Source of the DNA: Acidobacteriota bacterium
Lineage (GTDB): Bacteria > Acidobacteriota > Terriglobia > Terriglobales > Acidobacteriaceae
Reading direction: 5' to 3'
DNA: 64,000 nucleotides
Assembly: GCA_021792135.1 (NCBI GenBank)
Contig: JAJYVF010000028.1
Span: forward strand, 1-64,000
The notes beneath the pieces are model-generated. The model saw nothing but the letters and a program-made list of their open reading frames with translations, searched no databases and was not told the origin of the DNA. Positions 30,953-34,770 of this stretch are shown here, piece by piece. The number at the start of each line of letters is the position of its first letter. Position 1 is the stretch's first letter. The position numbers were made by a program, and so were the translations under genes.

Positions 30953-31705
30953 ATGCAGCCGGTCCGCGAGCGCGCTGTGGTCTGCCTCTCCGGAGGCATG
31001 GATTCCTGCGTCTGCGCGGCTCTGGCGGCACGCGACTATGATGCCTTTGCCCTGCACTGTAGCTATGGGCAGCGGACGGAGGAGCGCGAGCTGCGGTCGG
31101 CGCGGGCTGTCGCCGAAGCCCTTGGATTTCAGGAGTTTCTGCACTTGCGGCTGGACATTTTCCGGCGCATCGGCGGTTCGGCGCTGACCGATGCGCACAT
31201 CGAAGTGCCTGCGGCGGGTGCGGAGATCGGAGCGCAGATCCCGGTGACCTATGTGCCATTCCGGAATGCGCATTTTTTGTCGGCGGCGGTGAGCTGGGCC
31301 GAAGTGCTGGGAGCGAAAGCCGTCCTGATCGGGGCGGTGGAGCAGGACAGCTCCGGCTATCCGGACTGCCGGCCGGCGTATTACGAAGCTTTCCAGGGGC
31401 TGATTCGGGCGGGGACGCGGGAGGGCGACATCGTTGTGAGGACGCCGCTCATCCATATGCAGAAGAAGGAGATCGTTGCGCTCGGCCTTGAAGTCGGCGC
31501 GCCTCTGGAGTTAACGTGGTCATGCTATTCGGGCTCGGAGCTGGCGTGCGGCGTGTGCGAGAGCTGCGTATTGCGTCTTCGCGCCTTCGAACAGGCAGGA
31601 ATCAGGGATCCGATCCGCTACGCGACGCAGCCGGACCTGGGAACAGAAGCCGGGATGGAATTTTACGAGCGCGCGGTGCTGGGTGGAGAGCCGCGCCATC
31701 CATAG
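30953..31705 (+). CDS. queC: 7-cyano-7-deazaguanine synthase
   Basis: 250 residues; ATP-dependent conversion of carboxy-deazaguanine to preQ0 on the queuosine path. The PP-loop is LSGGMDSCVCAAL, followed by HCSYGQRTEERE. The zinc-binding cysteines are in the C-terminal segment CYSGSELACGVCESCVLR. No other queuosine genes are adjacent. It is divergent from rplU and followed 13 bases later by a TPR protein gene, so co-transcription is possible. Confidence 0.95.
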   Translation: MQPVRERAVVCLSGGMDSCVCAALAARDYDAFALHCSYGQRTEERELRSARAVAEALGFQEFLHLRLDIFRRIGGSALTDAHIEVPAAGAEIGAQIPVTYVPFRNAHFLSAAVSWAEVLGAKAVLIGAVEQDSSGYPDCRPAYYEAFQGLIRAGTREGDIVVRTPLIHMQKKEIVALGLEVGAPLELTWSCYSGSELACGVCESCVLRLRAFEQAGIRDPIRYATQPDLGTEAGMEFYERAVLGGEPRHP

Positions 31706-31718
31706 GAGAGGAAAGCAT

Positions 31719-32891
31719 ATGTTAAGGAAACGTCTTTGGCCCCGCTTCGCGCTGGCCACACTGATTGCCGCCGCGTTGCCGCTGGCGGTCCTGACTGCGG
31801 CAGCCCAGGCAAGCAAACCCGCTGCCGCCCAGGCAAGCCCTGCTGCAGCGGCCGCAACGGGACAGATTCACGGCCAGGTGATCGATCCGACCGGGGCTCC
31901 GGTCGGCGGCGGTGGCACCGTCTCGATGTATCTGAACGGTTTGGCCTCAGCTACATCGACGCCCAAGTACGAGCTCTCTGTGGACGCAGACGGAAGCTTC
32001 AAGGGGGACAAAATCGCGGTCGGTTCGTACACGCTCACCTACCGCGCCGCGAATACGCCGAAGGGACAGGTGGTGGATCAGATCGACGGTGTGAAGGTCG
32101 TAGCGGGACAGGACACCGCACAGAACTTCGACATGACGCGCGCAGAGTACATGTCGAAGCTGACGCCCGAAGAGCGCAAGACGATCGAAGAGACGAAGAA
32201 GAAGAACGAAGGCATTCTGAAGGAGAATGCACAGATCAAGAATCTGAATGCCGACCTGGCGAAGGCGCGGCAGGACGACAGGAGCCAGAACTTCCAGGAC
32301 GCCGCGGCGCTGATGCAGAAGGACGTCGCTGTGAAGCCCGATGCGGCCGTGCTGTGGGTGGAACTGGGCATGGCACAGCGGGGGCTGAAGCAGTGGGCTG
32401 ACGCGTCAACGTCGCTGCAGAAGGGGATTGAACTGGACGCGGCGAGCAAGAAACCCAATCCCGGTCTCGAAGGCGCGGCCAACGATGCCCTGGGCGAGTG
32501 CCTTGCTGCGCAGGGAAAGATTCCTGAATCGCAGGCTGCTTACGACGCTGCCGCGAAGATCAATCCCCCTGGAGCGGGCATGTACTACCAGAATGAGACG
32601 ATCGTGATGGCGCGTAGCGGTCAGACGGATGCCACGGTGGCGGCGGCCGACAAGGCCATTGCCGCCGACCCGAACCGTCCGATTCCCTACTACCTGAAGG
32701 GGCAGGCGCTGGTCAGCAAGGCAACCATGGATCCCAAGACGCAGAGGATCGTGGCTCCGCCGGGATGCCAGGAGGCTTACCAGAAATATCTGCAACTGGA
32801 CCCGAACGGGCAGTTTTCCGGCGATGCCAAGCAGATTCTGGCGCAGCTGACCAGCAGCCAGCCGACCAGCTACAAGGCGAAGAAGCACTAA
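31719..32891 (+). CDS. Exported TPR protein with an N-terminal carboxypeptidase-regulatory-like domain
   Basis: 390 residues with a signal peptide (FALATLIAAALPLAVLTAAAQA). An Ala/Gln-rich stretch precedes a beta domain (GQIHGQVIDPTGAPVGGGGTV, then GSFKGDKIAVGSYTLTY) like carboxypeptidase-regulatory domains. A charged helical linker (TPEERKTIEETKKKNEGILK) and about four TPR units follow (AVLWVELGMAQRGLKQWADA, ALGECLAAQGKIPESQAAY). It is probably periplasmic and protein-binding. AGGAGAGG (31704-31711) sits 7 bases before the ATG. A strong terminator follows the stop, with a group IIC intron inserted just after it. Confidence 0.82.
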   Translation: MLRKRLWPRFALATLIAAALPLAVLTAAAQASKPAAAQASPAAAAATGQIHGQVIDPTGAPVGGGGTVSMYLNGLASATSTPKYELSVDADGSFKGDKIAVGSYTLTYRAANTPKGQVVDQIDGVKVVAGQDTAQNFDMTRAEYMSKLTPEERKTIEETKKKNEGILKENAQIKNLNADLAKARQDDRSQNFQDAAALMQKDVAVKPDAAVLWVELGMAQRGLKQWADASTSLQKGIELDAASKKPNPGLEGAANDALGECLAAQGKIPESQAAYDAAAKINPPGAGMYYQNETIVMARSGQTDATVAAADKAIAADPNRPIPYYLKGQALVSKATMDPKTQRIVAPPGCQEAYQKYLQLDPNGQFSGDAKQILAQLTSSQPTSYKAKKH

Positions 32892-32913: not shown

Positions 32914-32942
32914 GAGCGCCGTCGAGAGCGGCGCTCTTTCTT
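32914..32942 (+). terminator. Rho-independent terminator of the TPR gene; group IIC insertion target
   Basis: An 8-bp perfect stem (GAGCGCCG at 32914-32921 with CGGCGCTC at 32929-32936) with a 7-base loop is followed by TTTCTT (32937-32942). It starts 22 bases after the TPR stop codon. The intron 5' end (GTGCAC) begins at the very next base, as expected for group IIC introns, which insert behind terminator stems. Confidence 0.85.
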
Positions 32943-33206
32943 GTGCACGCCCTGCATGAATGAGAGCTTGGAGGTGAGAGTCCTCTTCACATCCTGATGG
33001 GGAGAAGGGATGGCGAAGTGCAAGGGCGTCACCGCGAGGTGGGGTCCGAAGGAAGCGTGGAGCAAAGACGCGAGCCGACGGACAAGAACCGGATAGAAGG
33101 CCTGCGGCGCCGGACGAGCGGGCAACTGATCGCGAAGTCCACAACAATCAAGGGCGCTGGTGGTAAATTCAGCGGTTGCGCGTTGAAGGCGGTCGTTCTT
33201 ATCACG

Positions 33207-33437
33207 GGAGGATGGCTGCGGCGCAGCCTGCGGGCAGTGATCTGGAAGCAATGGAAAGGTGGAACGGTGCGGTACCGGAAGCTATGCGAACGAGGGGTCA
33301 GGAGAGATCTGGCGGCGCACTCTGCCGGAAACTCCCGTAAACCATGGCGTATAGCCAACAGCCCCGCAATGACTGCAGCGTTTCCTATGGCCTACTTCGA
33401 CTCGCGCGGTCTTCCGCGGATGTTGATCGCGACTTAG
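33207..33437 (+). pseudogene. 3' fragment of the group II intron reverse transcriptase/maturase
   Basis: About 76 codons plus stop. The reading GGWLRRSLRAVIWKQWK, then RYRKLCERGV, then AGNSRKPWRIANSP, then AYFDSRGLP is the conserved C-terminal maturase (GIIM) end of IIC-type intron proteins. Nothing resembling the RT domains precedes it; the upstream in-frame codons come from the RNA part of the intron. No start codon belongs to it, so it is not expected to give a working protein. Confidence 0.85.
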
Positions 33438-33451
33438 CCCAATCCTCCGAA

Positions 33452-33521
33452 CCGCCGGATGCGGACCCGCTTGTCCGGTGGTGTGGCAGGGGAGGAGAGG
33501 TGACTCTCCCCCTATGCCGAT
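33452..33521 (+). ncRNA. Group II intron domains V and VI
   Basis: Domain V: CCGCCGGA (33452-33459) pairs with TCCGGTGG (33474-33481) through eight pairs, including one G-T wobble. An upper GCG-GACC-CGC stem-loop and a bulge lie between. The CGC catalytic triad form is typical of group IIC. Domain VI: GGCA...TGCC encloses a GGGGAG/CTCCCC stem, with a bulged A in CCTATGCC as the candidate branch point. The intron end is placed at GAT (33519-33521). Confidence 0.8.
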
Positions 33522-33537: not shown

Positions 33538-34770
33538 ATGAGCGATGCGTCCGGCTCCATGGTTCTGAACTACGAAGAAGCCGCCGCCGTGGTGCGCGCG
33601 CATGCTCGCCGCTTGTCGCCGCGGGAAAGTGCCGTGGAGGAGCTTCCGCTGCTCCAGGGCGCCGGGCGCCTGCTGGCGACCGAGGTCGTGGCGGATCGGG
33701 AGTATCCGCCGTTTCCGCGCTCGACGCGCGATGGCTTTGCCTGCCGGGCGGCGGAGCTGATGGCCGGAAAGCTCCGCATCGCCGGGCAACTGCGGGCGGG
33801 CGAGGCCTGGACGCGAGGAGCCATTGGGGCCGGGGAAGCCGTGGAGATCATGACCGGAGCGGCGGTTCCCGCCGGCGTCGACTGCGTCGTCATGGTGGAA
33901 CATGTGAGGGTTGGGAGCGGGCAGGTGGGGCTTGCTGCCGCCCGCGCAATATCGGCGGGGGAGAACATCGTGCCCTCCGGGGCGGAGGCGCATGCGGGGA
34001 GCGTGCTGGTTCCGCGGGGCACGCGGATGGGCGCGGCCGAGATCGCGGCCGCGGCGGCCTGTGGATATGCGAGGGTGCGCGTTTTTCCGCGACCCCGCGT
34101 AGCCATCCTTGCGACCGGAGATGAGCTGGTGGGCCTGGGGGAGACGCCACTGGCGCATCAGATTCGTAACTCCAACAGTTACTCATTAGCAGCGCAGGTC
34201 GCGGCTGCCGGCGGCATGCCGGTGATTTTCCCGGTTGTCGCGGACGAACAGGAGGAGACCGAGCAAGCGATCGGCAAGGCGGCCGGATGCGATCTGGTGC
34301 TGCTCTGCGGCGGCGTCTCGATGGGCAAGTTCGATTTTGTGGAGCAGGCGCTCGAAGCGCTCGGCGCCGAATTCTTCTTTACCGGTGCGCGTATTCAGCC
34401 TGGGAAGCCTGTGGTTTTCGGCAGGCTCCCGACGGGATATTTCTTCGGTCTGCCCGGAAATCCGGTTTCCACCATGGTGACGTTCGCGCTCTTTGCCGCG
34501 CCCATGGTACGCGCCCTGGCGGGTGAGAGCGAAACGGAGCCGCGGTTTGTTTCCGCGCAGCTCGCGAGCGAAATTCGCGTCAAGCCGGGGCTGAGGCGGT
34601 TTCTGCCGGGGCGTCTGCGGAGCGATGGGAACGGCGCGCGCGTGCATCCGGTCGCATGGCAGGGCTCGGGCGATCTGGCGGCGGCTGCGCAGGCGAACTG
34701 CTTCGTTGTGGTTCCGGAAACGCGCGATCGGCTTGCGGCGGGAGAATGGGCCACGGTGCTGCTGCTCTGA
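33538..34770 (+). CDS. moeA: Molybdopterin molybdenumtransferase
   Basis: 410 residues; inserts molybdate into adenylylated molybdopterin. Typical segments are STRDGFACR, EIMTGAAVPAGVDCVV, VAILATGDELVGLG, IRNSNSYSLAA, LLCGGVSMGKFDFV, FTGARIQPGKPVVFG and FGLPGNPVSTMVTF. The ATG at 33538 is preceded by GGAGAG (33524-33529), which lies just beyond the intron end. The intron therefore occupies the space between the upstream terminator and the moeA ribosome binding site. Any moeA promoter must be inside or upstream of the intron. Other molybdopterin genes are not adjacent. Confidence 0.95.
   Translation: MSDASGSMVLNYEEAAAVVRAHARRLSPRESAVEELPLLQGAGRLLATEVVADREYPPFPRSTRDGFACRAAELMAGKLRIAGQLRAGEAWTRGAIGAGEAVEIMTGAAVPAGVDCVVMVEHVRVGSGQVGLAAARAISAGENIVPSGAEAHAGSVLVPRGTRMGAAEIAAAAACGYARVRVFPRPRVAILATGDELVGLGETPLAHQIRNSNSYSLAAQVAAAGGMPVIFPVVADEQEETEQAIGKAAGCDLVLLCGGVSMGKFDFVEQALEALGAEFFFTGARIQPGKPVVFGRLPTGYFFGLPGNPVSTMVTFALFAAPMVRALAGESETEPRFVSAQLASEIRVKPGLRRFLPGRLRSDGNGARVHPVAWQGSGDLAAAAQANCFVVVPETRDRLAAGEWATVLLL

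What the first reader, a model, noticed from the sequence alone, without database searches (positions are those of the whole stretch)
32943..33521. Maturase-deleted group IIC intron between a terminator and moeA
The 579-base element has a IIC-type 5' end, the C-terminal end of a maturase and intact-looking domains V and VI, but no reverse transcriptase. It sits exactly after TTTCTT of a terminator hairpin, the known IIC target type, and ends just before the moeA ribosome binding site. Such minimal derivatives are rarely annotated. If the catalytic RNA is complete enough, it could be mobilised in trans by a full copy elsewhere. If domains II-III are lost, it is a fossil.
Basis: partly seen in the sequence, partly recalled or inferred. 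Interest (0 to 1): 0.75.

Follow-up and report, generated by a model that had tools for sequence, protein, structure and literature searches.

The report
Broken terminator-targeting intron before moeA
A self-splicing mobile intron once jumped in right behind a transcription stop signal next to the gene moeA; this copy has since lost its protein gene and part of its catalytic RNA, so it is most likely a dead relic, although related bacteria carry shortened versions whose RNA core looks whole.

Summary
32943-33521 is a group IIC intron: domain I scores 125 bits against Rfam RF02001, domains V/VI fold canonically, and it sits behind a terminator hairpin. All 11 same-genus relatives found keep gene-terminator-moeA with no intron.

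The hopeful half of the reading fails. The deletion takes the reverse transcriptase and also the 3' strand of domain II and all of domain III, which covary in relatives. The nearest copy, in the same genome, has a different deletion. No intact reverse transcriptase was found in the assembly, and no other element shares the window's junction.

Two things nearby are more interesting. Among 39 introns with both ends, 16 are 336-732 nt; about 10 keep domains I-III, V and VI without an ORF, including two lineages at unrelated sites in several genera. In the window's genome, copies lacking domain I share identical deletions at unrelated terminators. Whether those moved after losing domain I or were spread by gene conversion is open.

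The parts
31683..32891 (+). Upstream gene (402 aa by first start; TPR-like by eye, not tested against a family library); neighbour kept in relatives
   Evidence: ORF list; tblastn 58-65% identity just upstream of moeA in 11 of 11 same-genus relatives
32914..32942 (+). Intrinsic terminator: GAGCGCCG/CGGCGCTC hairpin and TTTCTT; the intron's 5' exon
   Evidence: fold -24.5 kcal/mol, z -4.0; corresponding terminator uninterrupted in 11 of 11 relatives
32943..33521 (+). Internally deleted group IIC intron, 579 nt
33028..33198 (+). Domain I core (RF02001 match)
   Evidence: 125.2 bits, E 2.5e-25, model 1-170 of 170
33199..33211 (+). End of the 5' RNA part: 5' edge of domain II, cut at 33211
   Evidence: C35 copy continues into domain II/III at this point; covariation of the lost helices in relatives
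33212..33437 (+). Remnant of the intron-encoded protein gene: about the last 74 codons and TAG stop
   Evidence: 98% identical to the C35 copy over intron 270-579; translation; protein match
33451..33482 (+). Domain V
   Evidence: fold; RF00029 36 bits for V+VI
33484..33519 (+). Domain VI
   Evidence: fold
33538..34770 (+). moeA (410 aa), first gene after the intron

Best explanation
A group IIC intron retrotransposed into the T-tract of the terminator between the upstream gene and moeA (shown: empty site in relatives, exact ends, terminator target; retrotransposition itself is inferred from the class). After insertion, or during cDNA synthesis, one deletion removed everything from inside domain II to near the end of the maturase gene. 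It took the reverse transcriptase, the 3' strand of domain II and domain III (shown by alignment). The remaining RNA (domains I, V, VI) probably cannot splice or move well, because domain III is a catalytic effector (established knowledge; activity not tested). It is a non-coding relic between a terminator and moeA, one of many internally deleted IIC copies in this genome.
For: Domain I, V and VI matches. Empty site in 11 of 11 same-genus relatives, intergenic length about 69-118 nt. Domain III present in about 10 of 16 short relatives and in most full-length ones, absent here. In 15 related introns, 23 of 32 predicted pairs, mostly in the domain II and III helices, show compensatory changes; the window ends before their 3' strands. 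The sister copy at C35 keeps those domains. No second copy with the window's junction in its own genome or in 300 family genomes. Only a broken reverse transcriptase fragment in the assembly.
Against: Domain I and domains V/VI are well preserved: the window is 97% identical to its sister over 321 columns, so decay is recent. Group II introns without domain III keep weak activity in vitro (recalled). The assembly has contig breaks inside intron copies, so an intact driver could be missing from it.
Confidence: 0.85

Rival explanations
1. A functional ORF-less IIC intron, spliced and mobilised in trans by another intron's protein, like the TeI3 introns of Thermosynechococcus elongatus.
For: Real ORF-less IIC introns with domains I-III, V and VI exist in the same bacterial family: L220, L225 and L230 are 93-94% identical in three genomes of two genera, with unrelated flanks. 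The window's domain I is about 90% identical to L225.
Against: The window lacks domain III and part of domain II, which those keep. Its domain IV is a different deletion. Single copy, no intact driver found.
Confidence: 0.07
2. The deletion arose before insertion, or elsewhere, and the window is a copy of an already deleted element, spread by trans mobility or by gene conversion.
For: Elsewhere in the genome deleted family-2 copies share junctions between loci: C4 and C24 (474 nt), and C46, C8, C9, C68. Gene conversion between group II copies is documented in another bacterium (PMC3522654).
Against: No second element with the window's junction; the nearest copy, C35, has a different deletion.
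Confidence: 0.12
3. The element was kept as a regulatory leader of moeA.
For: It lies directly before moeA; GCGACAAT stands shortly before moeA in 11 of 11 relatives and is not seen between intron and moeA in the window.
Against: Absent from the relatives; intron RNA with no known regulatory structure.
Confidence: 0.03

Closest known systems
Group IIC (bacterial class C) introns
   Same: Domain I (RF02001), domains V/VI, insertion behind an intrinsic terminator, remnant of the class C protein
   Different: Reverse transcriptase, part of domain II and domain III missing
ORF-less group II introns TeI3 of Thermosynechococcus elongatus (PMC2882425, passages read; the class label IIB is recalled)
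   Same: ORF deleted from domain IV; relatives in the wider family carry shared-deletion ORF-less copies at many sites
   Different: TeI3 introns share one breakpoint in 17 copies and have driver proteins and shown mobility; the window copy has none of these and lacks domain III
Group II intron fragments in Enterobacteriales (PMC3522654, passages read)
   Same: Inactivated partial copies left after past insertions
   Different: Here both ends are intact and the deletion is internal
ORF-less IIC lineages found here (L220/L225/L230; L240/L255/L263)
   Same: Same family, similar domain I and domains V/VI, terminator sites
   Different: They keep domains II and III and share domain IV deletions across genera

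Membership tests
Group IIC intron | Class C-type domain I | tested here: met
   RF02001 125.2 bits, full model
Group IIC intron | Domains V and VI with intron 3' end | tested here: met
   fold z -4.5; RF00029 36.0 bits, below gathering 40; 3' end shared with relatives
Group IIC intron | Insertion just behind an intrinsic terminator | tested here: met
Group IIC intron | Complete domains II and III | tested here: not met
   so it is filed as a defective copy, not as a working member
Group IIC intron | Class C reverse transcriptase/maturase ORF | tested here: not met
   only about 74 C-terminal codons
Group IIC intron | EBS1/IBS1 and EBS3/IBS3 pairing with exons | not tested
   looked at by eye only; no clear register settled
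ORF-less mobile group II intron (TeI3 type) | Complete ribozyme without ORF | tested here: not met
   domain III absent
ORF-less mobile group II intron (TeI3 type) | Several copies with the same deletion breakpoint | tested here: not met
   none in own genome or 300 family genomes
ORF-less mobile group II intron (TeI3 type) | Driver protein in the same genome | tested here: inconclusive
   none intact in 77 contigs, but contigs break inside intron copies
ORF-less mobile group II intron (TeI3 type) | Splicing and mobility in trans | not testable with these tools
   needs RT-PCR or a retrohoming assay

The most novel reading that the evidence does not exclude
These bacteria carry SINE-like group IIC derivatives: ORF-less ribozymes, and even copies without domain I, that were multiplied into terminators using protein and RNA parts supplied in trans. 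The window element would be one such derivative. The ORF-less lineages alone are well supported as having spread after the deletion; it is the domain I-less ones that would be new.
Probability: 0.13. Interest if true: 0.8.

Novelty: new member of a known kind. Interest (0 to 1): 0.4.

Why it matters
The element itself is a relic. It leads to two things worth having. First, ORF-less group IIC introns with a whole-looking ribozyme, in several genera, where the review read here calls ORF-less group II introns rare in bacteria (PMC4424553, passages); my searches listed no report of an ORF-less IIC lineage, though only open-licence papers were searched. Second, a genome in which domain I-less copies sit with identical junctions at unrelated terminators, which makes it possible to test whether intron RNA can be moved with its core supplied in trans.

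Tried and rejected
Complete catalytic RNA: rejected on domains II/III. Protein-coding use of the 146-aa ORF at 32997-33437: rejected, because it runs through domain I and a C-terminal remnant; the protein alignment upstream of 33212 overlaps domain I and I do not take it as homology. The 3' end motif alone: CCTATGCCGAT with up to 2 mismatches is no signal by itself (26 matches, 16.3 expected); the case rests on the full models. RF00029 over 300 genomes was not used for counts: it scored few candidates per genome and gave 0 for the window's own genome. The genome-contig scan named relatives (Granulicella, Terriglobia, Bryobacterales, Mesorhizobium and others) but finds only introns that still encode the protein. 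Tree: 31 of 39 introns used; L284, L273, L264, L256, L281, L288, L242 and L269 were left out for damaged or unclear 5' parts. Survey: 72 of 79 RF02001 loci fetched, leaving out three own-genome loci and G011 (already held) and G285:C89, G178:C204 and G184:C400 (partial).

Full report
Observation. Rfam places domain I of a group IIC intron at 33028-33198 (125.2 bits) and domains V/VI at 33450-33521 (36.0 bits, below the gathering score of 40). The V/VI stretch folds far better than shuffles (z -4.5). The 5' edge lies directly after a hairpin and TTTCTT (fold -24.5 kcal/mol). The protein gene is reduced to about its last 74 codons.

Insertion shown by empty sites. moeA was found in 29 of 31 genomes searched, including all 11 other same-genus genomes. 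In those 11 the same upstream gene lies just before it. The intergenic stretch is about 69-118 nt (measured between ends of protein alignments), with an uninterrupted terminator and no intron.

What is missing. The sister copy in the same genome (C35:21376-22632, minus strand) is 98% identical over intron 270-579 and 89%, gaps counted, over 2-269, but carries 700 more bases at the window's junction and lacks 22 nt of domain I. Those bases hold domain II and domain III before the maturase remnant. In 15 related introns the domain II and III helices covary: 23 of 32 predicted pairs have compensatory changes. The window stops before the 3' strand of domain II and has none of domain III. The sister's maturase frame (261 aa) lacks the reverse transcriptase core, so it is no donor of a full protein.

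No parent in the assembly. PF00078 gives one hit in the whole genome, a fragment with a stop. The full-length intron protein of G011 finds only pieces (17 matches, none covering residues 133-274). Several copies end at contig ends, so a collapsed full-length copy may be missing.

Wider family. A 300-genome sample of the bacterial family has window-like DNA in 52 genomes at E <= 1e-15 and RF02001 in 48 at E <= 1e-8, the window's own genome counted in both. Of 75 loci examined (72 of the 79 RF02001 loci, plus the window, the C35 copy and G011), 39 have both ends: 16 are 336-732 nt, 4 are 870-1544 nt and 19 are 1805-2521 nt. Multi-copy full-length introns break assemblies, so these proportions are biased. 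Of the 16 short ones, nine show domain III motifs (for L220 partly from the alignment), L255 has a divergent one, and six lack it or show no clear one, the window among them. L284's 5' end was not well placed.

ORF-less lineages. L220, L225 and L230 (three genomes, two genera) are 93-94% identical; L240, L255 and L263 (three genera) are 85-88% identical. Within each set domain IV is homologous and the flanks show no similarity, so the deletion most likely came before the spread. L248 and L276 are 67-72% identical to the first set and to each other and share its layout; their common deletion is likely but less sure. The tree needs at least three changes between short and full forms on well-supported branches. 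Proteins related to a class C intron protein are long and open in G058, G069 and G278 and were not found at E <= 1e-20 in G123, G127 and G133 (10 genomes; G127 is 67% complete); G191, G279 and G081 have only more distant or partial ones there.

Copies in the window's genome. Mapped on G011's full-length intron (1833 nt), C46, C8, C9 and C68 share the loss of 95-482. C4 and C24 share the loss of 42-1303 with the same filler, and of 1438-1615. C31 and C57 share the loss of 414-1195. C35:43905 and C77 share a loss between 12-nt repeats. Upstream flanks show no similarity except 58 bp between C9 and C68. C46, C8, C9 and C68 are seen only up to contig ends. Four of 28 informative site pairs fail the four-gamete test, which fits recombination but is weak; early sites of C35:43905 and C77 in that table are flank. 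Movement after losing domain I and gene conversion both fit.

Terminators. In a comparison of 45-nt upstream stretches with 2000 random stretches of the window, 33 of 46 introns lie below the 5% energy mark; the window is counted twice there, so 32 of 45.

Papers. Passages read: PMC8919778, PMC4424553, PMC2882425, PMC12350094, PMC3522654. Others only as search listings.

Noticed in passing
L070, L071, L069, L072 (G000 C9, C68, C46, C8): Four copies with the same loss of intron bases 95-482 (most of domain I to III) behind terminators; an element without its ribozyme core at several sites.
   Followed up: partly
L020 (G000:C4:108998-109471) and L027 (G000:C24:245872-246345): Two 474-nt copies share two deletions and a filler of about 30 nt whose origin was not found.
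   Followed up: partly
L017:1962-2747 (minus), the C35 sister copy: 261-aa open frame that joins the maturase N-terminus in frame to its C-terminal half without the reverse transcriptase core; may be chance.
   Followed up: no
L263 (G081:C272), 3' flank: A second intron 5' end follows the ORF-less intron directly, as if two introns stand in tandem.
   Followed up: no
L306-L316, between terminator and moeA: GCGACAAT stands shortly before the moeA start in 11 of 11 same-genus relatives and is not seen there in the window; it could be a promoter element.
   Followed up: no
window 32943-32951: Intron 5' end GTGCACGCC has two more bases than its relatives' GTACGCC or GTGCGCC.
   Followed up: no
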